Part shown: positions 4,730 through 24,496 of the stretch, piece by piece
Layout: each line of letters starts with the position of its first letter
How positions within the stretch are numbered: the first letter of the stretch is position 1
NCBI GenBank assembly: GCA_001931875.2
Contig: MSJH02000669.1
Location: 1-64,000, forward strand
Reading direction: 5' to 3'
DNA from: Byssochlamys sp. IMV 00236
Lineage: Eukaryota > Ascomycota > Eurotiomycetes > Eurotiales > Thermoascaceae
Length of the DNA stretch: 64,000 bases
Translations under genes and position numbers: made by a program
Notes under the pieces: generated by a model
Database searches by the model: none
Seen by the model: the letters and a program-made list of their open reading frames with translations, nothing else
Told to the model about the DNA's origin: nothing

Positions 4730-6290
4730 ATGCAACTCATAATGCTTATGAGCAACCTTCCTTCTCTATGCCGCACTGCTGCGGTCGGCGCCTTGATTCT
4801 TTCTAGAGTCGCGGAGGGATTTCCCCATGGCCTCTTTGACAGAGCAAATGATCATGCATCTCATAACTCGCATTGGGTGGATATCTGGACGTCTATGCCA
4901 CAGTTGACGGAACCAGCTAACTTGCCTGATCCTCCGTTTGTGAGTACTCGCCGTCTGATGATTAGCTCATGTGTTGACTTGAGGTATAGAATGGAACAAG
5001 CACTGTATTCTTCAACTCCACCATAAGACAAACCATTCATAGCTCCATTGGCGCGGATCTCATTCGCATACGCATCTCGAATGCTTTCGGCATAGACGAC
5101 CTTACAATAACCAATGTAACTGTGGGCTTGCCAGCGGGAGGTAGAGCAGGTAGCAGTGCCATTGAGCCCGAGACGCTCAAGATAGTCACTTTCGATGGGC
5201 AGCCGGGAATTATCATTCCAGATGCTGGTCTCGTCGTGTCAGATCCGCTGGAGTTCAGAGTCGAGCCGCAATCGATGCTTACTGTCAGCATGTACCTTGA
5301 ACAAGGGCAACAAGGAGGCCACATCACCTCGCATCCAGGTAGTCGCACGACTTCGTGGATGGCGTTCGGTAATCAGGTAGACGCCGCAAATATTACGGGC
5401 CCTTCAGTACAGAGTGTTGAGCACTGGTGAGGAGATATCCGTGATACTTGAGAAAATAATCTCTTTTAGCTGATGAAAAGAATCATCATCATCATAGGTA
5501 TTTCCTCAGTGCCATTGAGGGATGGGTTTCGCAAGAATCGAGCGGGTTTGCTATCATAGGAGACAGTATCACTGATGGTCGTGGTAGCGATACCAACATG
5601 AACAACCGGTACGCGTGTTTGTCTCCTCACTGGGATATTATTAATAGTTATCATGAATAACAAGATTGGCTGACCATACGCAGCTGGCCTGACCTTGTAC
5701 TCGCAAAGATGCAGAGTAACCCAAGTACATCGTCCATAGCAGTGCTCAACCAGGCAGCAGGAGGAAACCGCATCCTGCATGATGGCCTCGGACCAAACGT
5801 AATCAGCCGAGTCGACCGAGATGTCCTTGCGCAATCCGGTATCAAGTATGCGATGATCTTCGAAGGCGTCAACGACATCGGCGTCGCGGACGCGGACCCA
5901 GTCAATCAAACGCTCATTGGCGATCGGCTCATTGGCGCGTATGAACAAATCGCTGCTCGCGTCCATGTGTTCGAAATACCAATCTTCGCAGCCACAATCA
6001 CCCCTTTCGGAACACCCGCGAACTCATCCGTGGTACAGCCCTATTCGAGCCCGGTGCGCGAACAGACAAGGCAGCGCCTAAACGCATGGATCAGGAGCAG
6101 CGGCGTATTCGACGCGGTCATCGATTTCGATGAAATAGTACGAGATCCCAACAACCCCTCGCAGCTCGCTCCTTGGTATGACTCTGGAGACCACCTTCAT
6201 CCCAATGTCGCCGGATATCAAGCAATCGCAGATGCATTCCCTCTTTCTCTGTTTTCCCGCTTCGCGGACGGTGTGGATAGACTTACATAG
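4730..6290 (+). CDS. secreted SGNH/GDSL-family hydrolase (XynE-like)
   Basis: Extracellular esterase/lipase-type hydrolase of the SGNH superfamily, probably acting on esters in plant polysaccharides or lipids; the exact substrate is not known. Four exons (4730-4939, 4990-5426, 5498-5608, 5684-6290) join in phase and give 454 aa. A hydrophobic N-terminus (MQLIMLMSNLPSLCRTAAVG) fits a signal peptide. The four SGNH blocks are in order: GDSITDG with the nucleophile Ser, NQAAGG, GVNDIG, and DHLHPN with the catalytic Asp and His. A beta-rich region of about 200 residues precedes the catalytic domain, as in long fungal members. N-glycosylation sequons such as NGTS and NSTI fit secretion. A nearby in-frame ATG (MLMSNL) could be used instead. 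It converges on the repeat-protein gene, 230 bp away. Confidence 0.9.
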
Positions 6291-6519: not shown

Positions 6520-7307
6520 CTAAAGGTCATTTATTGAAAGGAGCTTGTTTTGTTTATTATTTGAAAATGATGTTCCTGCTTCATGCCGGGAAAAAGCTAA
6601 ACCAAAATAAGCCTGTCCATCATCACCGCGCTTGTTGGGGGGGTTCTTAGAAGGAGGGCTCTGAGGGGGCTGAGGCTTTGGTGGAGGGGCCTTTCCATCA
6701 TCGCCACGCTTCTCAGGGGGGTGATGAGGAGGAGGGCCCTGGGGAGGCGGCGGGTTTCCACCGTCACGCTTCTGAGGCGGCGCAGGCTTCTTTGGCTCAG
6801 GCTTCTTTGGTGGTGGAGGCGCCTTGTTGTCGTCACGCTTCTCAGGCGGGTGGTGAGGAGGTCCCTGAGGAGGAGGGCCCTGATGAGAAGGCGGGTTTCC
6901 ATCGTCACGCTTCTGAGGGGGCGCAGGCTTCTTCGGCTCAGGCTTCTTTGGTGGAGGCGCCTTGTTGTCATCACGCTTCTCAGGCGGGTGGTGAGGAGGA
7001 GGTCCCTGAGGAGGAGGCGGGTTTCCATCATCACGCTTCTGAGGGGGCGCAGGCTTCTTCGGCTCAGGCTTCTTTGGTGGAGGCGCCTTGTTGTCGTCAC
7101 GCTTCTCAGGCGGGTGGTGAGGAGGAGGTCCCTGAGGAGGAGGCGAGGGGCCATCACGCGTGATGAGGCCGTTGTCTGATACAGTCAGTAACTGGTTTTT
7201 CTTAAGATATGCATTCAGGAGAAGAACATACCGCTGTCGACCGGGAGAGCTGCTCCAACAGCCAGACCGGCCACCATAAAGCCGGAGATGAGGGCGGAGA
7301 CCTTCAT
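6520..7307 (-). CDS. secreted proline-rich precursor with kexin-site repeats (KEP-like)
   Basis: Two exons, 7307-7232 and 7175-6520, join in phase to give 243 aa. Residues 1-19 or so (MKVSALISGFMVAGLAVGA) form a clear signal peptide. Residues 33-208 are a run of short peptides, each ending in Lys-Arg, the site cut by the Golgi protease Kex2. I count eight KR sites, at about residues 50, 72, 92, 114, 138, 161, 181 and 207. Two unit types alternate: type A (about 22-23 aa, starts DDNKAPPPKKPEPKK, ends PPQKR, three copies) and type B (20-24 aa, starts DDGNPP or DGGN, ends HHPPEKR). Two diverged units beginning GDDG follow, and the tail after the last KR starts GDDGQAYFGLAF. The layout matches fungal kexin-processed repeat proteins, which include pheromone, repellent and RiPP precursors, but the unit sequences match none that I know. 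The last 20 codons are AT-rich, so the true 3' end is less certain. The function is unknown. Confidence 0.85.
6628..7155 (-). repeat. tandem repeats encoding alternating kexin peptides
   Basis: Direct repeats with a main period of 126 nt (42 codons, one type A plus one type B unit). For example, the same 'ttgttgtc' segment on the plus strand recurs at 6962 and 7088, and at 6824 with a 12-nt longer spacing. Copies are nearly identical at DNA level, which suggests recent unit expansion or gene conversion. The spacing differences are multiples of three, so the frame is kept. Confidence 0.85.
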
Positions 7308-7412: not shown

Positions 7413-7419
7413 CTTTATA
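7413..7419 (-). promoter_or_regulatory. TATA box of the repeat-protein gene
   Basis: The minus strand reads TATAAAG about 105 bp upstream of the ATG at 7307, a normal fungal distance. A strong TATA suggests a regulated, possibly highly expressed gene. Confidence 0.5.
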
Positions 7420-10046
7420 GCATCGATCTCGAGAGCTATCCCGTTTCAAGATCTCAAGTCCAGACTCAATTTCCCGCCTTTCCACGATATTGAATGCAGC
7501 TATGACACTCCAGAATCACCTCTACCGGGATGCTGTCGTCAGTGTTCCCACACCTGCGGGATCCGCATGGCATCCATGCCCTAAAGGTCTGGAAGCTCTC
7601 TCATACTTGACGGGATACAGCTTAGAAGGACCAATTTCTAGCATTGCGAAACTGTGGATTTCCACTCGCTGTCGATCCGGAGTTGACGTTCGTTCTTTTT
7701 GTCCCAAACATGGCTAAGCTCCGACAAGTTATCCATATTGGGGAGTCTCAGCCACAACTATAAATTCCTCCCCTGTTTTGTTTACCTGTATGTACAATGG
7801 TTAGCTCTAAAGCCCCGAGGTATATTCAGGTTTCTTCAGGGGAAAGAACTCAACATAGTATGGTCTCCGGCGTAATGAAAGCTTCCCATTTGACAACATG
7901 AATTCGCGCTCAACAGTGCTAGCTACTCATGAAGTGAGCATCTGAATAAGGCCCAGAGCTCTTTCAACGTCAGAGGGTGAAGAGTAGTCGGACTTTTGTA
8001 GATCCGACACTGATCTGGGTAGGTCAGAACGAGATGCCCGAGTTGGCAGTTCTGGAGATTCAATAACGTCCCCACGATGGAGATTGCGAAAGCTGTCCTA
8101 CAGAGCACGTCCATCTGGGGGTGTGTATGAGAGGCTGCCAGGGCGCTTCCCTCCACTTTCGCTGCTAACGTGCTGGATTCCGACACGCGGCTACTTGTCG
8201 ATCATTTCCCGCTCCCCCTTCTTAGAGTTATCTTAGTCTCCGTTTAAGCACTGTTAAGGTCTCGATAGCGCCGATCATTTCAGCCGAAGGATATCATGGT
8301 CACGACATTGGCAGACGCAAGCTGGGGATTTTGGATTACGCATCAATTGGGTCGCGACATCCCTCATGCTCCGAACGTGAGATGATGGCTTTCGGGACTG
8401 CGCAAATAGTCATTGTTTGAGCAGGTATTGTGTTGACACGTCCGAAAATAGACTGCTCCCAAGGTCACAGATGACGAGGCCCTCGCAATGATAGGTAGAG
8501 CTGCATTCCAGTTCCGTACAACGTCCTCCTGCATCGACCGTCTTCTCGTCTTCTTTGAGAACAGTCCGAGAAACAGGGGTCTGCAGTAGGAGCTAACCTT
8601 AGACAGCAAGTAGTGTCTCCATTGCTTGGGAAGCTCGTCTCAGAAGATCTTGGGCGTCAGTAACACTATCCTAGATCTGTAAGGAGAGCTCTCGAGAGAG
8701 ATGTGTTGATACTCCAACCTGGTTGGCCATCTCCAGCACACTGAGACAGTACGTGGAAGACATTATTAGCTCTCCTTGCTGATGCTGTTGCTGCCACTGC
8801 CCGTTTGGTGACACGAAGCAGTAAGCCTCTGCATACGAGCACGCTAAACTAGGACAATATCCGGATGGATGATGCTTTGGGTTATTGATTCGGTCAGGTC
8901 ACTGGTTCTAGGCCCGATAGCTATGTCAAAGAATTATGTCAAAGAAATGGTTCTTTGGCCAAACCATTTCTCCTTGCCATTATAATCTTGCCATTATTAT
9001 GTGCCGAATAGGTGACATGTCGTGATGACCCTCGTCAATCGCATGACCGGAAATTGACCGGTTGGCGCCTTGACCGAGATTTCGCACTTCTCCACAAACC
9101 TGTGTTTCTCTGTAAGAGTGCTCTTTTGTACTCGTACAGAAATTCCTCATCAAGTTCTCAATAGCATTTCCCCCTTACACAAGCTTCCGAAACACCCGAG
9201 GCAAACCCCAGCATAGGGCAGATCTCGAAGAGCTGGCTTTGATGGTCTCAAGCCTTCGAGACAGACATTTCGAAGACGAGTACCACTAGACCACGAGTCC
9301 ACGAGCACAAAGGGACTTGAATAGCTTGTTGTGGAAACAGACAACGATCTCAAGACACATGCAGAGGACACGGCGGAATCGGTGAGTGCCGGCCCGCGGG
9401 AACGAGTCCGCATTGTTTTCCCAAAAGTGCCTTTTCCGCGTTTTGAGGAATTCGACCCTTCAAGCGTCAGTCACCTTCCGGAAGCTCCTCTGCTTTTTGG
9501 GTGATGATAATTACTTACGACCAGAATCTATTTTCTGATATGGAACGGTACTTGCAGTTGTGATTGGCATCAAGGGTCCCTGATAATGAACAGCGGTTTG
9601 TGCAGTCAGTGACCTGTTGTCATGGAAGCTCGCACAGTATTGTCAGGCGCGCGATGTGGTATCATTTCTTTATCACCAGGATCTCGTTAACAGCATCTGT
9701 ATTCTATCGTTCCTGATACGGACTTATTGCCTCGTCGTTACTGTACGCTCGAGATACCGTTCCAAGTGAGAATCAAATATTTCCTGTGGCATTGAAGAAG
9801 CAGAGTTTATTATGTACTAACATAGACATAAAGTATAATATATATAGACACGATCAAAGAAATTATATCCTACTCCTCGTCGTATCCCATGATAGTCTAC
9901 CCGTAAACTCAGTGGCCACCCACTCGAGCTCCCTGTCGAATGTGGTGTTTAGGCGGTGACGGGCATCGAGAAGAAACGGTTTCCCCCATCGATCAATCCC
10001 AGGTTCGATAGTTACTGACGGTGATGCATGGACAAGGCTAGCCTTT
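7420..10046. other. long intergenic stretch with possible gene relics
   Basis: About 2.6 kb with no intact gene. On the minus strand between about 8900 and 7920, coding-like stretches (one ends with PLTLKELWALFRC) are broken by several stops and change frame; this could be a decayed gene, but I cannot name it. A tRNA-like fragment sits near 9241-9298 (see findings). A short inverted repeat with arms aaatggtt/aaccattt lies near 8946-8970. Nothing else is supported. Confidence 0.4.
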
Positions 10047-10508
10047 CTATCTTCTGAGGCCAGGCACGGCAGTGTTGCTTGCGTTTCGAGGAATGAGGTC
10101 GAATGTCTTCAAGAACTCGTCCAGCAGGTCGGTAGTGGTCAGAGCGAACCCTTCTCCCACGGTTTCCAGGAGACAGGCAGCGACGAAAGTTGCGTTGATT
10201 CCAATTCCCAAAAGGTCGGGCGCCCACTTGGATGGGTCACCCCACCAGATGACCTCCCAGTGGATTTCATCGATGAGCTTGTTGAAGCTGAGGTCGGACA
10301 ACCCTCCAAGCTCGCCGACGATGCGGTCGCTGACGGGCCAGAGACACTGGACGAAAGCGTCAATGGGTGAGTTGTCGTTGGCAATGGGTTCTGCAAGGTT
10401 TGGCTTGTGAGAGGTAGTAACCGTCGCGCTCGAGGTTGTCGTGGTGGCTTCTGGAGCGGCAAAGGACGAGGCGATGAGCCCCATAAGGGCAAAGGAGAAA
10501 AACTTCAT
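10047..10508 (-). CDS. small secreted protein of unknown function
   Basis: An intronless 153-aa protein. The N-terminus MKFFSFALMGLIASSFAAPE is a typical signal peptide with a cleavage site after AxA. A Thr/Ser-rich linker (about residues 20-34) suggests O-glycosylation. The remaining globular part, about 115 aa, holds only two cysteines (in QCLWP and AACLLE), which could form one disulfide, and two N-glycosylation sequons (NATF, NASN). I do not recognise the family. It is not a classical cysteine-rich effector or hydrophobin, since the cysteines are too few. The ATG at 10508 is the first in frame and a TATA box lies about 150 bp upstream. Its neighbours are a secreted repeat protein on one side and a P450 on the other, all on the minus strand but far apart. 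Confidence 0.75.
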   Translation of the reverse strand: MKFFSFALMGLIASSFAAPEATTTTSSATVTTSHKPNLAEPIANDNSPIDAFVQCLWPVSDRIVGELGGLSDLSFNKLIDEIHWEVIWWGDPSKWAPDLLGIGINATFVAACLLETVGEGFALTTTDLLDEFLKTFDLIPRNASNTAVPGLRR

Positions 10509-10621
10509 TTTGATGAACAGCTAGCTCGATGGCTTGATCGTCGAAACGAAGGAATTGACAGCTGTCAGCTGCCTGGTTTTGAGGAATGAGCGACTGAGCT
10601 GAGCTGAGCTGATCGGAGTGA

Positions 10622-12781: not shown

Positions 12782-14785
12782 CTACTCTTGCACTATCTTT
12801 CTCTGCCGGAACTCGACCACCTGTTCCGGCATACAAGTAAACCTATCTCTCTTGATGTGGGTGGCACCGTCACCAGTGTTCAGCTCGAAGTGCTGCATAA
12901 CAGCCACCAAGAACTGTTTTATGATCACGTTGGCGACGTTTTTGCCCAGGCACTTTCGCGGGCCCATTCCGTATCCCAGCATACTATAACGGGCCTCTCG
13001 GCTAGTGATTTTATCCCATCGCTCTGGACGGAAGGAATAACCATCCTCTCCCCAGATGGGAGACGTTTTGTTGAGTCGCTGGGTATCGATGATCACGGTA
13101 GTTCCGGCTGGAATGAGAAAGCCATCTATGCGTTTCTCTACGGCGGTTGTCTCGGGGAGAGAGAACCCTGAGGCGTCGATTATCAGCAGCGATTAGAATG
13201 GTACAGACTCCCAAGGTATACTCACAGACTGGCGGGTTATTACGGAGAATCTCGAGGTAAGTCTTGTGAAGGAACGTATCTTCTCTTCTGACAAACTCTG
13301 CGATCTTCGTCTCGTCGCTTTCGATGGCTTTCACCTCCTCGTATAGACGCTGCTGGGAGTTCGGTGTCCGCCCTATATTGATCAATGCGTACGCAAATTG
13401 AGCGGATGTGACATCAATGTTGGTGAAAAGGATCTCGTCCAGCGATTGTAGGAACTGACGACTAGTCAGTCGATGTCGGGAGACAAATCCATCGGTTTTG
13501 GCTTACCATATCTGTGGTCATCTCACCGCGCTCAACGGCTTGGAACATCCGTTCTGCACGACAAGGCGTACCCGACTTTATATGGAGTCAGCTGATAAGG
13601 CCCGGTGGTTGGAATCCGATGTTCATGCCTACCTTTCTTGCCTCCTCGATCACATCCAAGTTGAATTCTTTCCAACCATCCTCATACGCGTGCAGTGCTC
13701 GGTTGGCAGCTGTAGGCAGGTAACGGTAAAACCGCATGTTCTCCCAGGTTCCGAAGAAGGTATGAGCCGTCACTTTCTCATGGATCTTGTTCAAGTGCCA
13801 CAACCTCTCAAAGACCTACAATCGAAGGAGCATCAGCTACCGTACGAACTTTGATACTTCCCACTTCCCAGTTGTGAGTTTCTTACCTCGTCAGTAAGCA
13901 TGTCACCGTACAGAGACATGGAAATCATACGGAAGGGCAGTTTTCTGCACGCCGCAACACTGTCTGCGAGGAAGGTACTCGGAGAAGTAGGTGTGGCTGC
14001 GGAGTCGCCGGGCAGCTTTGTTGCCCAGTCCGTAAGGGCCTTCTGGAACTCAAGGATCATCGAAGCTGCTTCTCCAGCCGAAAAATGAGCTTCGAGATGT
14101 CTGCGAGTTTTGTGCCATCTCTCTCCGTTCTGGACGCCAACACACTGGCCGAGGCTCCTATGGATCAAGTGCGCGTCAGCTCCCTCCCGATCAGAGTATG
14201 AGAGGAAAGGACACGGTTTCTATACCTTAGGAAATACTGGCCCATATTGGCATCCTGTTTCTTCTCGTGGTCTTGGGGGAACAATCAGCACCCCGTATCT
14301 CCAGGCTACACTGAGAACTTACATCTAGCATCCTTTTCGAAGAAGTCGCGAACCTGATTAGGACTGAACAACACCAGTTCGATCTTCGATTTGTTCTTGA
14401 CAAGATACGGGTCTGGTCCGCTCTTTTGTTCTCCCTCTTGCGAGAGCTCCTTCCTGTGGGTCGAGAATAAGCTCACGATCCAGAGTGTCGGTACAACGCG
14501 GTCGGGATATACTTACCCATGAGTGAAACGGAGATACCTAGTATCTTTGTCAAGGATCTTCATCTTTCTGCCATCGATATGCTTGTAGTGGAACGCGTTT
14601 GCCCTTTTTCTTGAATGCAAAACTGCAATGGCTCCAAGAATCAGGAACAGCAGAGTGAACCGGATTTTCAAAATTGAGAAGATCAGAGTATACACGGGCG
14701 TCTGACTTGACAGTTCATCTTCATTTACTGTCGAATCTAGATAAGACACCACGGATACTCTGTCACTTGTTGATGTCAAATTCAT
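12782..14785 (-). CDS. cytochrome P450 monooxygenase
   Basis: Membrane-anchored heme-thiolate monooxygenase, probably in the endoplasmic reticulum; substrate unknown. Eight exons join in phase: 14785-14517, 14453-14323, 14271-14226, 14157-13887, 13815-13633, 13575-13507, 13454-13226, 13167-12782, giving 527 aa, a normal P450 length. A membrane segment lies at about residues 30-55 (VYTLIFSILKIRFTLLFLIL). The K-helix ExxR is in YLEILRNNPP, the PERF-type motif is SFRPERW, and the heme-binding loop is YGMGPRKCLG with the Cys ligand. This loop has Tyr where most P450s have Phe. LPETTAVEKRIDGFLIPAGT before the PERF region is typical. It is divergent from an O-methyltransferase with 1.1 kb between the starts, a layout common in fungal secondary metabolism. 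The exon 6 acceptor at 13576 is my best choice; the alternative at 13554 breaks the frame. Confidence 0.92.
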
Positions 14786-15888
14786 TTTCGAATTTTCTCG
14801 TCCAATGTCTGTTTAGAGCAAACGAAATTGGGTCTGCGAGTATGAACAGGAACGATCCCAGTCGAGGTTATAGAAAGCTGTATAATTCATGTAGGACAAG
14901 GATCTCCTGATACGGACCGTCAATATTAAGCACTAAATGCAGGGAATACCCTGCAGCTCATCAGAGAAGTGATCACTATGCTTACTGTTATTCCTAAGCA
15001 AGTATGGCTCCGCAATGCTGAAGATGGCCACTCCCAAGTATCCACGACAAAACATCACGTTGAGATATCGAGAAGTTTCCGTGACCCGGCTCTTGAGTAC
15101 CTAAAACCCTGTCGTGAGGCACACATACTAGGTAGATCCATTTAGCAGGACACATCTCCTCGGGGACCATCAAGGTTTGGTTGTGGCCTCAAAATGTGCT
15201 AGAATGGAACCCGCCATACTCTCCTAGTAATACGGTACCAATACAGGGGAGACGGGCTGTAGGCCTCCACTCCGCTATCTCAGGGCTGTCAACTTTAACA
15301 GAGAAACAAAAGAAGGAATCGACGTTGTGAAGCAGGGTGGCTGCATCGTGCAGTTGCCCGATTTCGGAGGATGTTAGAATAAGGTAAACATCAATGGTGA
15401 TCATTTTTCTTTTTTCGCCCGTGCAATCTATGAGCATGACACACGGCTGAGAATCTTCATGATGGAGAAAGATTGATTAGGGCATGTTGACAGGACTCTC
15501 AGCCCCAAGTCCCTCTTAGCACGATTTAGTTCCACCCACCGGCTATTTTTTCAGTCTTGCCAAGGTAGGCTCCGCCAAGGAGGGGAGGCTCTCTACATGA
15601 GACTTATTGCGTCCGGAGATCGCCAGTTGGAGAATCCCGATCGGTCTTGAGATCACCAGAATGTAAAATGTGTGCGGGTTCTGATCCGCTTCAATGGGTC
15701 GTACTGTTGGTCACAGTTTGACCGTGTGGTGATTTGAGTTGTAGCCGTACGAATGCTCAAGGGACCACGATATTGAGTAGCAGATTTCTAGATAAACCAA
15801 CGGAGTCGTCCTTTTGAGGGAGTTGAAGAGAAAAGCTTTCTTCCAGTCTTAAAATTCCTCCGTTGGTTGTTGATATCATTTCCGCATA
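14786..15888. promoter_or_regulatory. shared intergenic promoter region of the P450 and O-methyltransferase genes
   Basis: 1.1 kb between divergent start codons. No open frame here is supported as a gene. The sequence should hold both promoters, and co-regulation is an inference from layout. I could not single out a palindromic Zn2Cys6-type operator. Confidence 0.5.
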
Positions 15889-17486
15889 ATGGCAACCGAG
15901 AAGAATCCAGTTCAAGAGCTCGAGCAGCTTCGAGACCTCATCAATTCTTCTATAGATATTATCAAGAAGAACGTTACTGAGAATGGAGATCCTCCTCTGA
16001 CATTGAAGACCAACGAACCCCATCCGATCTACAGCAGGAATGACCCCCATTTGGCACAAGCTCTGAGGACTGTTTCGTCCTCGGCGCAGATGCTCAGGGC
16101 TCTCCTTGATCCGAACACCTTCCTCAACGATATCATATACGGAGTAAGATACTTGGCTTTCGTAGAATAGTGGTCATAGTCGAGACTAATATCTTTGATT
16201 CAGTATCATGATGAGACCGCTCTTCTGGTCGCCTGTCAAGCGGATGTCCCCAACTTGATCGGCGACACCGACCGTCATATAGACGAAATTGCTGCTCAGG
16301 CGGGTTTGAATGCTGACAAACTCGGCCGTTTCTTGAGGAACCTGTGCAACTCATACATCTTCGAAGAGACAGCACCGAACAGGTTTGCTAACAATGCACT
16401 CTCTGCGAGGTTCAAACCTGAAGGAAAGAGAGCAATTGTCGGGCATTGGTATGTCTGCCAGCGGGGATATAACCACAGGGGCGATACTGATAATGCTATT
16501 CCAGCGCCGACGAAGCTCGCGTTTCCTCATGCAAGTCATGGGAAGCACTTACCCTTCCTGAGTACAAGGACTCCACGGAAGCAAACAAGGCTCCTTTCAA
16601 CATTGCCTACAATACGTCGCTCACATACTTCCAGTATGTTGCGACTGAAAGACAGGATATAGGAATAAGGGCGAAGAAGGCCATGGCCGGGAAAGGATTC
16701 AATCTTGGTCAATACCTCAGCTGTAAGTCGACCTAGCGTCTCTTTACCGAAAAAAGAGACAATTGACGACGAGATTGCAGTGTACCCCTGGGGATCTCAG
16801 AAAGGCGCCAAAATCGTAGATGTCGGGGGTGGAATTGGGGCCGCGACGTTCCCCATCCTTCAAGCCAACCCGGACCTACGACTGACGGTGCAGGATATTC
16901 CGGATACTGGACCTGAGTTCCAAAAGGTAACTGCATGACTCCCGTGGACCTGGTATCCTTCCCTGCATGAGGACCAAATATTAACTTCGACTCGTTACTT
17001 TAGAACCTTGAACAAAACTTCCCTGACATCTTGAAGTCGGGTCGTGCGGAGTTCATGGAACTGGACTTCTTCAAGTCCGCCCCTGTTAAGGGTGCGGATA
17101 TCTACTTCCTGCGCCATGTCATTCACGACTGGCCGGACGCAGAAGCCATCAAGATCCTTAGTGGCTGTACTTCCTCGATGTCTGCACAGAGCAAGCTGCT
17201 AATTTGTGAGCACGTTGTCTGTCCCACATATCGGTCCGCAGATGACAGCACCACAGCCGAGAAAGGATCTAACAGCGAGCCACACTTCGTAGCACCTGAG
17301 CCGTTGTTGGCAAACTGGGGAGACGCACCCACCAGCAGGCTAGATCTGCAGGTATACACATGTTTGAACGCCAAGCAGCGGACGAAGCTTGAATATCAGG
17401 CTCTAGTCCAGCAGGCAGGCCTGAAACTGGTCAAAGTGTGGCGCAACTTGGGAGATGAGACCATCCTTGAATGTCTGCTTCGCTGA
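15889..17486 (+). CDS. SAM-dependent O-methyltransferase (family 2, COMT-like)
   Basis: Transfers a methyl group from S-adenosylmethionine to a hydroxyl on a small aromatic or polyketide-like substrate; the real substrate is unknown. Five exons (15889-16143, 16204-16448, 16505-16722, 16781-16926, 17004-17486) join in phase and give 448 aa, the usual size for fungal secondary-metabolite O-methyltransferases. The N-terminal part is a helical dimerisation domain. The SAM site is VDVGGGIGAATF (about residue 170), the second acidic site is VQDIP, and the catalytic His lies in RHVIHDWPD, followed by the ICEHV acidic segment. The ATG at 15889 is preceded by cataATGGC, a fair context. An insertion rich in Ser/Thr/Glu (about residues 345-375) is variable in the family. 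Divergent from the P450. Confidence 0.92.
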
Positions 17487-19944
17487 GGGTATTCTCAGTT
17501 AGAATGTCTAACGCACGTAAGGTGCCGTTCTAGTAGATTCAAGATATGCCGGATGCTTCTTTAGGCAGCCTCATCCGTCCCATACTTAGGGAATAGTAGT
17601 TCATCAGAAACTTCCCTTTTTTTTCTTTTCTTCGTTTAGCAGTAATTTTATATTGAATCGTCACCAAAGAGAATGATTGGACACCATACCATATGCAGAA
17701 CCCCCTCAAAGCACCAAGTAGGTCTCCCAGGATGAGAAATTTTGTGTGGTTAGACGTATCGTCCGGACAGATTCCCACAAGGACGGAAAGTGGCCGGCAT
17801 GGATCGAACCTAAGAGATGTCCTTGCAGATGACTCCAGGCTGACAGGACGTGTCGCTGGCCACCTCGATCGGGGGCCATGCTGATCATCCCTATTTACCG
17901 TGAATAATGATTTTTCAAGCACGCTGAGCGTGAAGTGGTTCGAACATGTGGCGTGCCGATCAGGCGGGAACAGATGTCTCGGCCGTGGAGAATTGGATCC
18001 TCTGCTGAGCTTGGGGTGGGACACGCGGGCCGAGTATAATAGCTAGTCGAGAAATTAGTTCATAATTCTTCAAGTACTATATACTCTTCGACAGTCAATA
18101 TCCCTGTCTCTGTCGGAAATGGGCCGGACCCTGCCGATAGTTTGTGCTCCTCGGTAAAACAAACCATCTTTTCCTTCGGACTTTTAGACAATTTCATTGA
18201 CTTCCTGAATGAATAACTATCCAGAAAACAAACTCCATGTTCTAATAGGGGACTTACCTCAAGGCTGACACTAGGTTAAGGGCTATAGCATATTTGCAGA
18301 TGCCCGACGACTGTATGATAGTTCCATGGTAGGCCATTATTTCTTGGCCCGATAGTTCGTTTACCGCCGTAGACGGATTCCATCAGTCATTCCATCATGG
18401 CGTCACTCTGTGGGAATTCGAGTGAATATCCCCATTGAACTGGTAGATCAGTCTGCCTAGCTCTCTTCTCTTTAGAGTCCAAAGCATCTTCGGATGGATA
18501 AGTTTCCCAGGATGTCCCTGTCGACATAAGCGTCAGAAGTGGATCCCGCTTAGTCCCACTCTAACGGCGATGCTGCCGTTATAGTTATCTGATAATCGCA
18601 TAACTTTGATCAGAGATCATCAGGCCCCTTCAAGCGAAGTTGAAGACCATGTTCTGCTCCACTAATGGGAGCAGATTCCAAGGAACGTACTGGAACCATG
18701 CGGCTATTATTGATGTCTCTTATTCCGAGGTTTTCCTGATCAATTGTGCTCGTGATACTCAACCTTCAGGAACAACACTTGGCATCCGCACAAGCCCGAG
18801 AGTGGAGTTATCATACAACCTTGAGCTAAAGCCGGACGATTGCCGTGAGCTGTAATGAAGTCCTGGGCAACGCTTTTGCGTTGATATCAGACGTTGGAGT
18901 AGTTCAAGCGGAGCGATTCAGACACCGATCTCCCGGCTATCTGTGCTGCTTCTTCAAAACCCGTATGGGGGATCCCTTTCACAAGGCCAAGGCCCTCAAG
19001 TTAGTCCGTCTGTGTGGATACGTCATTCCTCAATGAAGTGACTCCATCGGCAGGGTTTCGTAATTTACGTACACCACTGTCATGAATAACTAATGAAAAA
19101 GAAAGCACACAGGGCTGGAAAGGATTATTGGTGGCGTAGTCCCCGAAATATCAAACGATATTGCTCAATAATTCGTTCTTTTGTAGTTCTGAATCCCGAG
19201 TTCTTGGCCCATTGTCTCCGTACAGGTCCTGAAGACTTCGTCCCGCTGCTTGGACTTCCACTCGACAGCGTTCCGCAGAGCTTGCGAGACAACTTAACAC
19301 CAAGGCGAAAGGAGGATGATTTAGCCCCTGTGGATAGTGCCGTTCAGCTTGCACAGAAAATATGTCAATTGGAAACTCGAATTGAGTGTCGTTGAAACCT
19401 TTCTTTCTTCGTTACCGGGCTGCGATCAGTCCTCCATTGGCGGTTCTCGAGTATTCTGTCGCTTCGGGAAACTCCTCTCCAGCTAACAGATAACAACAAT
19501 TCTCATGAGAAATTATACTTCCTTGGTGAAAGCAAGCTTCTGCGCACTTCTTGTAGCACCTCGATTGGCCCGTGACATGTCAAGTTACGTACTCGAACCG
19601 GTGTGAGTGGAGATTATACCAAATCAGTTACCTGAGTGACAATCGACATAGATTACTTTCAGGGCTCCACTTACAGTCAGATTCAACCCGTCCCTTCGGG
19701 GACTTCTGTTCATTATAGGCCAGGCAGTCCTTTGCTCCGCAAAGTTCGGGTCAAAGAGATCTAGGTTTCCCGGGGCTCTGGATATTCCACGAAGTGATTG
19801 CTCAGGCAAGGAGGTATTTAGTAGAGGAATACTTACAGAATCAAGGTCTGAGCGGATATCAAAGACCCTATTTTCCATGATATCCTCTTCTATGTTTCCT
19901 TTGCGAGTCTTTCTGCTTCGTCCGTTAGCATTGATATCATTCAA
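17487..19944. other. long intergenic stretch, no gene supported
   Basis: About 2.5 kb. Plus-strand open frames at 18640-18855, 18845-19036 and 19093-19395 lie in a row, but I found no splice sites that connect them into a convincing protein and recognise no domain. A minus-strand frame of 161 codons (17539-18024) looks like chance. A relic or a gene with many small exons cannot be excluded. Confidence 0.35.
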
Positions 19945-21971
19945 ATGGCCGACTTCCTCTTTCCCGCGTTCGAGCAGCGGATTCGCTCTCACAGGAGGCT
20001 CCTCTACCCTGCATTCTTAACAGACTTGGTTCGAGGCGCTTCAGACGCTATTGAAGCACTCGAGTTGTTCCGCGGCCTTCTCCTGGGGACCAACAATGGT
20101 CCACAGTCAGTTGGTTTCATGGCCTTCGATGCACACGGAGGAGATACAGCATGTCATTTTCGAGCAGGGATGTTGCTTGAAGTCTTCTCGGTGCACCGCC
20201 AACTGATACTCGACCAAACTGTCGGGACACCAAGGATCCCCTTGTGGATCAACAAGTATATCCAATCGTTGGAAGAAACACGTGAGCGAGCAAAGAAACT
20301 CTGCGCAGCACTCACATATGACCGAGTTCATCCAACGAGGCTCGGTTTAGGGGCCAAAGAGGACACATCTGAACATATACTCGGCGTCTTGGGATGGACA
20401 GAGCCTTTCTTCCCGCGAAACCGCGAGGGTTTGTACGGCAGCATCGAGCCTTCCGGGGAGAGCCAGAAAGGCGTCCCTTTTATCACTGTCTTGAATAACG
20501 GGAACTTAACCCCCGCCTCTCTCGAGAGCCCCGAGAGCCCCGAGAACCCCGACCTCGAAGACCCTGGGCTTCTTAGCAATCAGCTCTCGTGCTTGAATCT
20601 GGCAGGACTCCCTCTTGAGCTCGACCACACAAAGCAAGATTGGCTCCATGGTGCTGGAAGACACGGTCCCCTCCATTCCGCCTATGAGTGGAACATTGGG
20701 GTTCCCCCTTCAAGTCCACCAAGGAGCCCCTCATCCGGAGCCACTCCTTCCATTGATGACTTCGAAAGCGATGTCTCCCCTCTTCAAACGCGATGGGACC
20801 TCCTCGATGGTAGGCTGGTGGTTCGATTCATTGTTTTTTCCTATATCCTCTCAAAGTACAAGACATTCTTTTGTTCCAGGGACGTCGTTGGCGCTCGTCT
20901 ATATCCGGAAGGTGCAGTCAGCCGCGGATATGAGTTGATGGAGCAGTCCTGGAATTTCAAAAACGTGGAATATAAGAAAGCAAAGCTTGAGAGAATGGCG
21001 CTGGAGCTCAGAGCTCTTCAGATGTGGCTATCCGATTTCAGCTGCGCCTGGCTGCAGTCCCTTTCGGTGAGATACTCTCCATCAAGTAACATGGCAAGGT
21101 GATCCATTCTGGTGTACTGTCTTGAAGCGAACACATCTAACGGTCCACTCAGACTACTGCTCGGAACAGTCCAAAAGTCTGCCAAAGGGTTGACAGCGGC
21201 GGCTTGCTATCCCGGTTATATCCTTCTCCGCAACGAACTTGCTCGAGAGGAACAGACCTTCGTCATGATTGACCGGCACTTCTGTCCACATGGTATGATA
21301 GTCTGTTTGCTATATAGCACCAAATGTTTTCAGACTGCTGACGAGTTACAGGAATCCATTTCAATGTGTTCCTAGCAGATCTCCACCATACAGGTAACAA
21401 GGAAGATCAAGAGACTCGCTTCGACACGCGGCTCGAGCCTGTCGATTGGAAGGTCAGACAAGTGACGCTTGACGACCTTTATAGTTTGCCGAATCAGTCA
21501 AGGCCTCATCCTGTCGTGATGGGTAATAGCATCCAGGGTGCGTCCGCAGATTACATCGCACGCTTATCATCTCACTACACTTCAGATCCTGTGGGAACAA
21601 GTCTTCATGAAGACTCCTCATGCGAAGAGAATGCGGCACATATAGAAGACTTCCTTGCTGCGGATCATGATAGGCTAGCTCTGTCCTTCTTTGCTGCCCA
21701 CAAAAGCTATTCCTTCCCTCTCGCAAATGCACAGGATGAAGTAGAATTTGTGGGTTCAAGAATGGATGAAGAATGGCCCGGTCTTCGCGAGCGATGGCTT
21801 GCGTCTCGAGAGGAGATTTCCACATTAGGGGGCGGCGAGCAAGGCCTCCATCTCTTCGGTTGGCAGCATATGTTCGTCGATACCAAAGAACGCTTGGCTC
21901 ATAAGTTGGATGTTTGGATCAAGAATGGGGAACTGATGCCGTTGTCTGCAGATGTCACGGCGAGGAATTAA
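19945..21971 (+). CDS. large uncharacterised protein
   Basis: I do not recognise the family. The model uses exons 19945-21066, 21178-21292 and 21352-21971, in phase, giving 618 aa. The segments KGLTAAACYPGYILLRNEL and GIHFNVFLADLHHTG appear only when these exons are joined and look coding. There is no signal peptide. The middle (residues about 190-290) is Pro/Ser/Glu-rich and likely disordered; the flanks are helical and hydrophilic (VEYKKAKLERMALELRALQ could be a coiled coil). A 70-nt segment at 20810-20879 has good donor and acceptor sites, but removing it would shift the frame and truncate the protein, so I keep it as coding. The first acceptor (21178) was chosen because it keeps the frame; the stronger-looking one at 21153 does not. 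Exon limits are therefore moderate. Confidence 0.6.
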
Positions 21972-22898
21972 TGTATTGGTTGGATCTCTGTGATGTTAAT
22001 GATATCCCACGTTTCATGTCCATCGGTTAGTCGATAGTAAATAATGGAGAAACTCAAATCGATACCCCGATCTGGCTTATTAACGTTGTCACGAGGTGCC
22101 ACGACTCCAAGATCGGGCAGTTTCTGGTAATTTGGGATACACCATTGCTACTGGAGGTATCGCAGGATAGGTAAGCTGCAGCATTTTTACTCCTGCCTTC
22201 CTGCATCCCTTCATCCCTTATATCCCGTGCCTCGCAAAGCTGAATTTCCAGGAAGATGGCGATACAAGCCGTTGCTGTGGGGTGAAGTCATTCAAAGTCA
22301 TTATTGATGCGCTTGGGGGCGCGGGGTTTCCCGTATTCGAGATAAGCTTGCTCCCTCGACCAGTTAGCCGTTCTTTTGGAAGTGGAAGCCCATTTCACCT
22401 TCGGTCTTTTGGTTATCTGGCTCTGGTGCCTTATCTGTTAAGATCTGCCTCGATAATCGCGACACAGAAGACCGACAGGGTTCAAAAGCATGGTTTAGGA
22501 ACATCAAAGGTCCCTCCCGGAACTGTCTCTTCGGGCTCTCTGTTTATTGTATGTAACACCAGCTCTGACATGCGGCGAGAGAAAGGTCATTATCCCACAA
22601 CAGTCTTCAGAAGGTGATCATCCCCAGAATTTCCTTACAGCGACGAGGATTCCCCGCGCCAATCATTCTTGCCGTTCGTGGTACTGGAATGCGGAGTTTC
22701 TGTCGGGATTCCAGATAATAATGTAACCCTATCGCCTTGTTATCTGGGCTTGGGCCTCTCTTGCTTCGCTCCTTGGCATGATAACAGCAGTCTAATCAGA
22801 CTGTTATATAGCCAAGCATTGAGATGTTCTCCCATCGTCGTACAGCTGACGCTGGAAGATTCCGTCCAGGATATCAACGAGATCATTCAGTCACGGCC
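21972..22898. other. intergenic, promoter of the MFS gene
   Basis: 0.9 kb without a supported gene. A TATA-like ttatatag lies at about 22803-22810, close to the transporter start. The open frame 22282-22617 is not convincing. Confidence 0.45.
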
Positions 22899-24496
22899 AT
22901 GGTCTCCAGTCAAGAAGATCATTCAGTGGCAGATGATGTCACAAAGGATGCGGTCTCTAAGACAAGCTACCATGGCATTGACAAGATCGATAGCGGTGTC
23001 GGCCAAGCAGGCATCATTCACGATGTCGCGCGTGTGATTGATCACCAGGCTGAGCGTTCTCTTTGCCGGAAGTTTGACATCAGACTATTGCCGATAATCG
23101 CTACCATGTATCTATTCAATGCGCTTGATAAAGGGAACCTCAGTAATGCTCAAACTGATGGACTCAGTGACGGTAAGCATCAAAGACACACTGCGCCTCT
23201 GATCACGACCCTTTGGTTCTGACTGGGATATCGATAGATCTAAACTTCAAACCTAATCAATATAACCTTATCCTGTCGATATTCTTTGTTCCTTATGTTG
23301 TCTTTGCGCCACCGATAGCAATGCTAGGAAAGCACTTTGGTGCTAACCGCACGCTTCCCATACTCATGTTTTCTTTTGGATCATTCACAATGTTGGGAGC
23401 AGCGACCAGGAATTTTGGTGGGATCTTCACGCTCCGATGGTTTCTGGGCATGTCAGAGGCGGCCTTTTTCCCGCTTGTGATTTACTACTTGACCACTTTC
23501 TATCGCCGTGGGGAACTTGCTCGACGCCTCGCCATCTTCTATGCGGCTTCGAACATCGCCAATGCATTCTCGGGTCTCTTGGCCTTCGGTGTATTTCAAA
23601 TCAGGGATACGAGGATTGAGGGCTGGCGGTACCTTTTTATCATTGAAGGAGCATCTTCGGTCCTCTTCTCCATTTTCGCCTTCTGGTATCTTCCACGCAG
23701 CGCTGCTGAGGCGAAATTCCTCAACGAAGATGAGAAGAGGTTGGCATATCATCGCATTCAGGTTGATTCGAGCTCTGTTGTCAACGAGAAGTTCAACTTG
23801 CGCGAAGCTCTCGTCATTTTCAAACATCCAACTACCTATGCGTTTCTGGCGATCGAGATCTGTTTGGGTGTTCCTCTGCAAGGAGTGTCATTGTTTATGC
23901 CTCAAATCGTGCAGCGGCTGGGATATCCGACCGTTAAGACTAACCTTTACACCGTGGCACCCAACATCACAGGCGCTGTCATGCTTCTTGTCCTAGCCTT
24001 TGCTTCGGATGCCACCCGAATCCGGTCCGTCTTCATAGTCCTCGGGTTCCTGTTCACTTTTGCAGGTTTTATGATCTATGCCTCAATCAACGACGTGCAA
24101 GCTCAGATCAGACTTGCGTATTATGCTACTTTCATGATGACATGGGGCACTTCCGCGCCATCGGTGCTCTTGAGTACTTGGTACAACAATAACGTCGCCC
24201 ACGAGGGCAGACGGGTCTTGCTGACGAGTATCGGTGTGCCTCTTGCCAATCTGATGGGGTTGGTAAGTAGCAACGTCTTCAGATCCAAGGATAAACCAAA
24301 ATACATGCCAGCACTCATCACGATTGCTGCGTTTGGGGCAACCGGTGCATTGTTAGCTGCATTACTCGGGATCTATATGTGGCTAGATAACAAGAGAAGA
24401 GATCGACAGGCTGGAGTGAAGATTGATGCTCGAGATGTACCGACAGAGAGGCTGAGAAACGGCCCCGATAGTCCAGAATTCCGCTGGTTTCTCTAA
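22899..24496 (+). CDS. MFS transporter, Dal5/anion:cation symporter type
   Basis: Plasma-membrane major facilitator of the family that takes up allantoate, nicotinate, pantothenate and similar organic anions by proton symport; the substrate is not predictable. Two exons, 22899-23172 and 23238-24496, give 510 aa with about twelve membrane segments. Family marks are FDIRLLPIIATMYLFNALDKGNLSNA at the first helix, FLGMSEAAFFP, and the ending SSNVFRSKDKPKYMPALI. An in-frame ATG at 22824 is 25 codons upstream, but it lies only about 15-20 bp past a TATA-like element, so I prefer 22899, which has G at -3 and G at +4. The GTAAGT-like sequence after LMGL (about 24262) is not used, because the following residues are conserved in the family. 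It could import a nutrient or export a product of its neighbours; neither is shown. Confidence 0.92.

What the first reader, a model, noticed from the sequence alone, without database searches (positions are those of the whole stretch)
6520..7307. Kexin-processed repeat precursor with two alternating proline-rich peptides and no known match
Directly seen: a signal peptide, eight Lys-Arg sites, and alternating type A (DDNKAPPPKKPEPKK...) and type B (DDGNPP...HHPPEKR) units, then two diverged GDDG units. Established: fungal proteins with this layout are cut by Kex2 and give pheromones, repellents, or RiPP cores. Inference: this gene releases at least two different Pro-rich peptides. Type A is basic and Pro/Lys-rich; type B is rich in His and Pro and could bind metal. 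Neither resembles a core that I know. The units begin with acidic residues right after each KR, which is characteristic of kexin-cut repeats.
Basis: partly seen in the sequence, partly recalled or inferred. Interest (0 to 1): 0.78.

Follow-up and report, generated by a model that had tools for sequence, protein, structure and literature searches.

The report
Proline-rich kexin-cut repeat peptide precursor
A mold closely related to Paecilomyces variotii carries a gene for a secreted protein that looks built to be chopped into two alternating kinds of proline-rich peptide; the layout is a well-known fungal type, but no relative of these peptides was found and their job is unknown.

Summary
On the minus strand, 7307-6520, two exons joined by a 56-base intron encode 243 residues: a signal-peptide-like start, LPVDSDNGLITR, then B-A-B-A-B-A-B units, one GDDG unit (C) and a Pro-free tail. 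All eight Lys-Arg sites are followed by Asp or Gly; all six Lys-Lys pairs by Pro. Copies differ mostly at third codon positions. The layout fits a Kex2-processed repeat protein (KEP), and the assembly encodes a kexin. Best reading: kexin frees linear Pro-rich peptides, basic A and His/Pro-rich B. A cyclised RiPP is less likely: no Tyr, Trp or Cys in A, B or C, and none of 12 UstYa matches is on this contig, though its left end is only 6.5 kb away. Two protein-database searches, Pfam and PDB gave no relative. The organism is a Paecilomyces variotii relative, not Aspergillus. Verdict: new member of a known kind; processing likely but not shown, function open. A tannin-binding role like that of salivary proline-rich proteins is the boldest reading and is untested.

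The parts
7232..7307 (-). Exon 1: start codon, signal-peptide-like N terminus (residues 1-20 MKVSALISGFMVAGLAVGAA, 7307-7248; cleavage point judged by eye) and the start of the propeptide
   Evidence: no signal-peptide predictor was available
7176..7231 (-). 56-base intron with GTATGT donor, CTGAC branch-like word and CAG acceptor
   Evidence: one donor matched the pattern used; among acceptors 40-120 bases away it was the only pair giving over 150 aa; no transcript data
6520..7175 (-). Exon 2: end of propeptide, repeat array, tail, stop codon
7099..7155 (-). B1 unit DGPSPPPQGPPPHHPPEKR, preceded by the single Arg of LITR
7033..7098 (-). A1 unit DDNKAPPPKKPEPKKPAPPQKR
6973..7032 (-). B2 unit DDGNPPPPQGPPPHHPPEKR
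6907..6972 (-). A2 unit, protein identical to A1
6835..6906 (-). B3 unit DDGNPPSHQGPPPQGPPHHPPEKR
6766..6834 (-). A3 unit, one extra Pro
6706..6765 (-). B4 unit DGGNPPPPQGPPPHHPPEKR
6628..6705 (-). C unit GDDGKAPPPKPQPPQSPPSKNPPNKR (diverged)
6523..6627 (-). C-terminal tail GDDGQAYFGLAF... (35 aa, no Pro, the protein's only Tyr; GC 0.36 against 0.64 for the array). It holds two AATAAA words (starting 6558 and 6535), so the true 3' end is uncertain
7414..7419 (-). TATAAA word 112 bases upstream of the ATG, promoter-like
   Evidence: consensus match only

Best explanation
The gene encodes a Kex2-processed repeat protein. The signal peptide takes it into the ER (inferred). In the Golgi, kexin cuts after each Lys-Arg, and probably after the single Arg of LITR (inferred). 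A Kex1-type carboxypeptidase then trims the KR (inferred, recalled). The cell secretes linear, unmodified peptides: three copies of basic A (DDNKAPPPKKPEPKKPAPPQ), four of His/Pro-rich B (DDGNPPPPQGPPPHHPPE and variants) and one C. The internal Lys-Lys pairs are followed by Pro, which should protect them (recalled enzymology). A and B are released in a fixed ratio near 3:4 and most likely act outside the cell as extended polyproline ligands for a surface or small molecule, rather than as a mating pheromone or cyclic toxin. The confidence given is for the processing claim; the extracellular binding role is much less certain, about 0.3.
For: Layout and coordinates. Third-position bias: 3 of 3 variable columns among A units and 10 of 16 among A plus B units lie at codon position 3 (P = 0.016 against 1/3); 25 of 40 codon differences are silent in this frame, against 2 of 36, 4 of 35, 9 of 40, 15 of 35 and 3 of 36 in the other five. 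KR is followed by D in 6 of 8 and G in 2 of 8, and P2' is acidic in 7 of 8 (sequence); cleaved Kex2 sites over-represent acidic P1' and P2' (PMC2515848 abstract and section 9). The assembly holds a kexin on C809 (PDB kexin 2id4, E 1.3e-154). Two further KEP-like ORFs lie beside UstYa matches in the same assembly. In Coprinopsis cinerea linear KEP peptides, one of them DDDPEGPPAPSW, were found in culture supernatant by mass spectrometry, and KEP 490115 expressed in Pichia gave peptides apparently from the stretch between signal peptide and a single Arg (PMC9769878 passages). No UstYa match on this contig.
Against: No transcript, protein or peptide evidence. No ortholog found, so conservation of KR spacing cannot be tested. 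P4' is acidic in 0 of 8 sites and is Lys at the three sites before A units, while positive residues are under-represented at cleaved sites. In that study 12 predicted substrates are listed as cut and 8 as uncut. The codon test uses few, related copies, leaves out B3's inserted stretch and places gaps in this frame; B alone is 7 of 13 at position 3. A mechanical scan scores an opposite-strand frame of the array higher (6 similar dibasic pieces) than this one (4). The contig's left end is 6.5 kb away, so a UstYa gene beyond it is not excluded. The assembly may be mixed, so the kexin and the other KEP-like ORFs may not all belong to this organism.
Confidence: 0.76

Rival explanations
1. Uncut secreted proline-rich protein (wall or matrix component) in which KR is part of a basic, extensin-like repeat and is not used by kexin.
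For: Pro makes up 72 of 243 residues. Low-complexity Pro/Lys-rich wall proteins are common (recalled). In PMC2515848 8 of 20 listed predicted Kex2 substrates were not cut in vitro.
Against: KR falls only at unit borders, each followed by D or G, while the six KK pairs inside units are all followed by Pro. No Pfam domain of any kind.
Confidence: 0.13
2. Precursor of a modified or cyclised RiPP with B (HHPP) as the core, as in the di-His KEP types that usually sit beside DUF3328/UstYa genes.
For: KEP types G-3 and G-8 have di-His with Pro; 57 of 64 and 45 of 49 of them have a DUF3328 neighbour (PMC7329392 section 7 and Table 2). The contig's left end is only 6.5 kb away.
Against: None of 12 UstYa matches in the assembly is on this contig. 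A, B and C have no Tyr, Trp or Cys. The KEP-like ORFs found near UstYa on 2 of 7 contigs do contain Tyr.
Confidence: 0.07
3. Alpha-type mating pheromone precursor.
For: Same precursor logic: signal peptide and KR-bounded repeats.
Against: The protein has no Trp or Cys, whereas Eurotiales alpha-pheromones have a W-C...G-Q-x-C form (recalled). A separate ORF with an apparent signal peptide and WCRRPGQPC lies on C677. The pattern search by itself is weak: 2 hits against 3 in its control.
Confidence: 0.02
4. Not a gene: a low-complexity tandem array that happens to be open in several frames.
For: The 126-base period keeps other frames open. In a mechanical scan an opposite-strand frame gives more similar dibasic pieces (6) than this frame (4). 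No relative was found.
Against: Signal-peptide-like exon and consensus intron; silent differences are commonest in this frame, 25 of 40, the next best being 15 of 35.
Confidence: 0.04

Closest known systems
Kex2-processed repeat proteins (KEPs; Le Marquer 2019 PMC6339444; Umemura 2020 PMC7329392)
   Same: Signal-peptide-like start, at least three similar pieces between dibasic sites, units of 19-26 aa with KR, repeats filling most of the protein.
   Different: Two strictly alternating unit kinds: 79 of 1193 KEPs in PMC6339444 had two or three motif kinds (section 24). No homolog found here; 2560 of 7878 KEPs in PMC7329392 had none either, so that alone is common.
Di-His plus Pro KEP types G-3 and G-8 (PMC7329392)
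   Same: HH accompanied by P in the repeated core.
   Different: Most of those have a DUF3328 neighbour (57 of 64, 45 of 49); no UstYa match on this contig. Their logos are in a figure that could not be seen, so sequences were not compared.
Coprinopsis cinerea KEP 447393 and its peptide DDDPEGPPAPSW (PMC9769878)
   Same: Linear KEP peptide with acidic N terminus and Pro-containing body, found in culture supernatant.
   Different: From a non-repetitive C terminus; ends in Trp; no sequence relation claimed.
Basic salivary proline-rich proteins PRB1-PRB4 (PMC3235478)
   Same: Secreted tandem-repeat precursors cut at furin-like sites (furin being a kexin relative); repeats with P-Q-G-P-P, a word also in the B units (PQGPPP in B1, B2 and B4).
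   Different: No homology shown; cut at R-S-x-R, not KR. PQGPPP was picked after the fact and arises in 1116 of 200000 shuffles of B2.
Dikaritins (ustiloxin, asperipin-2a, phomopsin)
   Same: Dibasic-bounded repeats in a secreted precursor.
   Different: No UstYa match on the contig (left flank short); no Tyr in A, B or C.

Membership tests
KEP | N-terminal signal peptide | tested here: inconclusive
   Hydrophobic stretch ending AVGAA read by eye in exon 1; no SignalP available
KEP | At least 3 repeats of at least 8 aa, none over 100 aa, between Kex2 sites (PMC7329392 section 13) | tested here: met
   A x3 and B x4 between KR sites (B1 entered by a single Arg), 19-24 aa. The papers' own pipelines (40-residue seed scoring, FIMO, TMHMM) were not run
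KEP | Repeats fill at least 15% of the protein (PMC6339444 section 24) | tested here: met
   By that rule A alone gives 22 x 3 of 243; units span residues 33-208
KEP | Kexin present in the organism | tested here: met
   C809 matches PDB kexin at E 1.3e-154. Met for the assembly; that C809 and this contig share one organism is assumed
KEP | Peptides actually released | not testable with these tools
   Needs mass spectrometry
Dikaritin RiPP precursor | UstYa/DUF3328 gene nearby | tested here: inconclusive
   12 UstYa matches in the assembly (a lower bound), none on C666, but the left flank is only 6.5 kb
Dikaritin RiPP precursor | Tyr-containing repeated core | tested here: not met
   No Tyr in A, B or C; the one Tyr is in the tail
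Alpha-pheromone precursor | W-C...G-Q-x-C type core (recalled form) | tested here: not met
   No Trp or Cys in the protein; a candidate lies on C677
Salivary PRP | Homology to PRB proteins | tested here: inconclusive
   Pfam at E up to 10: 0 families; PDB: 0. Whether either library holds PRB sequences was not checked, and no direct comparison was made

The most novel reading that the evidence does not exclude
The gene is a fungal counterpart of the salivary proline-rich proteins: a convertase-cut precursor that floods the surroundings with two complementary polyproline peptides (basic A, His/Pro-rich B) that bind plant polyphenols and so shield the mold's secreted enzymes while its tannases work. 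[quoted passage not shown] None of this tests binding, and tannase genes are common in related molds (recalled).
Probability: 0.07. Interest if true: 0.72.

Novelty: new member of a known kind. Interest (0 to 1): 0.38.

Why it matters
[quoted passage not shown] This gene predicts two chemically distinct, exactly defined peptides from one precursor, in a fungus for which transformation and reverse genetics are published (PMC6300479 abstract), so processing and function can be tested directly. If the peptides bind polyphenols it would be a striking convergence with animal saliva.

Tried and rejected
Relatives by sequence: the full-length search scored 7991 candidates, none at E up to 0.001; region 1-60 gave 8 candidates, none at E up to 10. 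Power check: 25 randomly mutated versions (10-50% of positions redrawn) all scored E 1.7e-48 or better, 5 reshuffled-unit versions 2.1e-81 or better, and none of 5 shuffled controls appeared. That holds only if a relative shares enough 5-residue words to be scored, which a half-changed one may not. P. variotii proteins are in that database, so in those records this gene is absent, unannotated, or annotated with a length outside about 134-425 aa; which was not resolved. Pfam at E up to 10: 0 families. PDB at E up to 10: 0. Other copies in the assembly: none. No structure prediction was run: a Pro-rich, probably disordered protein was not expected to give a meaningful model.

Mixed assembly: the kexin-like gene on C459/C710 differs from that on C809 (46 and 69% identity over two stretches; locus GC 0.41 against 0.54), and C459 and C710 are identical over the 3258 bases compared. 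G000 may be redundant or hold a second organism. I rely on C809; that it belongs to the same organism as this contig is not proven, nor is it for the UstYa, pheromone-like and tannase loci.

Literature searches: (one search listed 8 of 51 papers and 8 of 14; the others listed all). No paper naming this protein was noticed in those listings, but supplementary tables of the KEP surveys could not be opened; Paecilomyces and Byssochlamys do not occur in the two surveys' main texts. So 'unpublished' is not claimed. What was seen: PMC7329392 abstract, sections 6 (part 1 of 2), 7, 13 and passages; PMC6339444 abstract, sections 4 (part 1 of 2), 10, 24 and passages; PMC9769878 and PMC3235478 passages; PMC10055108 passages, not used; PMC6300479 abstract and passages; PMC2515848 abstract and section 9.

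Full report
WHAT IS THERE. On the minus strand of the window, 7307 to 6520, lies a two-exon gene. Exon 1 (7307-7232) starts with ATG and encodes a hydrophobic, signal-peptide-like N terminus. A 56-base intron (7231-7176) has a GTATGT donor, a CTGAC branch-like word and a CAG acceptor. Exon 2 (7175-6520) encodes the rest. The protein is 243 aa, 72 of them Pro. Its order is: signal (1-20), LPVDSDNGLITR (21-32), B1, A1, B2, A2, B3, A3, B4, C, tail (209-243).

CHANCE AND FRAME. In 100000 shuffles of residues 21-243, 0 reached eight KR (mean 1.26, maximum 7). Since the units are copies, the independent information is less than that suggests. The array repeats with a 126-base period, so several frames are open. 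A mechanical scan for repeated dibasic pieces even scores an opposite-strand frame higher (6 similar pieces) than this one (4), with a further minus-strand frame at 3. So the frame is decided by three other things: exon 1, the intron, and where the copies differ. Three of 3 variable columns among A units, and 10 of 16 among A plus B units, are at codon position 3 (P = 0.016 against one third; B alone is 7 of 13). In this frame 25 of 40 pairwise codon differences are silent, against 2 of 36, 4 of 35, 9 of 40, 15 of 35 and 3 of 36 in the other five. For this count B3's inserted stretch was left out and gaps were placed in this frame, which favours it somewhat. Copies of one kind differ in length by 3 bases, or by 12 to 15 for B3.

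ORGANISM AND PLACE. An 843-aa ORF on the same contig (44194-46725, SR140-like) is 99% identical to a Paecilomyces variotii protein, 89% to P. lecythidis and at most 71% to the named Aspergillus proteins among the 120 rows listed. The window is the left end of contig C666, which reaches at least 312 kb. The assembly is 47.4 Mb in 840 contigs and may be redundant or mixed: contigs C459 and C710 are identical over the 3258 bases compared, and two clearly different kexin-like genes are present. The gene itself has one copy.

CUTTING. Each KR is followed by D (6 of 8) or G (2 of 8), and P2' is acidic in 7 of 8. Cleaved Kex2 sites over-represent acidic residues at P1', P2' and, moderately, P4' (PMC2515848 abstract and section 9). 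Against this, P4' is acidic in 0 of 8 and is Lys before the three A units, and in that study 12 predicted substrates are listed as cut and 8 as uncut. All six KK pairs are followed by Pro, which should block kexin (recalled; I found no passage on it). The assembly encodes a kexin on C809 (PDB kexin 2id4, E 1.3e-154) and DPPIV-type matches, but the DD, DG and GD starts are not the XA/XP dipeptides of a Ste13 signature (PMC6339444 section 24). Cutting at the single Arg is plausible: C. cinerea KEP 490115 expressed in Pichia gave peptides apparently from between the signal peptide and a single Arg (PMC9769878 passage).

WHAT KIND. The protein meets the countable criteria of a KEP (PMC7329392 section 13; PMC6339444 section 24); the signal peptide was judged by eye and the papers' pipelines were not run. 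Two motif kinds in one precursor are uncommon but known (79 of 1193 with two or three), and lack of homologs is common (2560 of 7878). Di-His with Pro is described for KEP types G-3 and G-8, where 57 of 64 and 45 of 49 have a DUF3328 neighbour. In this assembly none of 12 UstYa matches is on C666 (such counts are lower bounds). I fetched 14 stretches, about 20 kb around the UstYa matches on each of the 7 contigs that hold one. A scan of single-frame ORFs of 60 aa or more found KEP-like ORFs on 2 of the 7: SADDEAIPFYPKR, 11 similar pieces (L027), and RAEDTAEYAYFALDSDTEVKR-like, 3 pieces (L025). Precursors split by introns or by the cut between stretches would be missed. Both contain Tyr, and their acidic residues stand at P3' and P4'; A, B and C here have no Tyr, Trp or Cys and start with the acidic residues. 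So the linear reading is favoured, with the reservation that the left flank is only 6.5 kb. A pheromone role is unlikely: the protein has no Trp or Cys, and an ORF with WCRRPGQPC, a KR and an apparent signal peptide lies on C677; the pattern search alone found 2 places against 3 in its control, so the context carries that inference.

RELATIVES. None found: full-length (7991 candidates scored), region 1-60 (8 candidates), Pfam, PDB. P. variotii proteins are in that database, so in those records the gene is absent, unannotated or annotated at a length outside the search range.

HOW IT MOST LIKELY WORKS. Inferred chain: secretion, kexin cutting after KR, trimming of KR, release of A, B and C at about 3:4:1. 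Computed net charge at pH 7 is +1.8 for A and -2.1 to -3.1 for B; at pH 5 it is +2.5 for A and -0.4 to +0.5 for B. Polyproline peptides of this kind are extended ligands (recalled). I hold an extracellular binding role as most likely (about 0.3), antimicrobial activity of A as possible and metal binding by B as possible; none was tested. The salivary-PRP comparison rests on shared layout (PMC3235478 passages), on the PQGPPP word, which was picked after the fact and arises in 1116 of 200000 shuffles of B2, and on tannase-family matches at five places. It is a lead, not a result.

On re-reading the calls I mended several statements (acidic positions in the other KEP-like ORFs, P4' count, cut and uncut substrates, strand-scan scores, the UstYa and PRP membership rows, the third way a P. 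variotii ortholog could have been missed).

VERDICT. A real gene (about 0.95) and most likely a KEP that frees two kinds of Pro-rich peptide (0.76). New member of a known kind, function open.

Noticed in passing
L027 (G000 C827, UstYa match at 106840-107409): Repeat ORF with 11 similar SADDEAIPFYPKR pieces within a few kb of a UstYa match: a likely dikaritin-type precursor in the same assembly.
   Followed up: partly
L025 (G000 C802, UstYa matches at 81911-84314): ORF with three RAEDTAEYAYFALDSDTEVKR-like pieces within a few kb of UstYa: another likely RiPP precursor.
   Followed up: partly
L019 (G000 C677:65103-65129 and flanks): ORF with MKLSPIFLVILLLAISLKTTA and then WCRRPGQPC followed by ARIKR: looks like a single-copy alpha-pheromone precursor.
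   Followed up: partly
L012, L013, L014 (G000 C459, C710, C809): Two clearly different kexin-like genes (46 and 69% identity over two stretches, locus GC 0.41 against 0.54), the first on two contigs identical over 3258 bases: the assembly may be redundant or contain a second fungus.
   Followed up: partly
window 10047-10520 (minus): 157-aa ORF with an apparent signal peptide and no Pfam match at E up to 0.001.
   Followed up: no
window 5661-6290 (plus): GDSL-type lipase exon ending 230 bases past the end of the KEP gene, tail to tail on the opposite strand.
   Followed up: no
window 13011-24496: P450, O-methyltransferase and MFS transporter pieces within about 11 kb, which could be a small secondary-metabolism cluster.
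   Followed up: no
window 9517-9615 and G000 C666:311964-312062: 99-base stretch repeated at 88% identity on the same contig.
   Followed up: no
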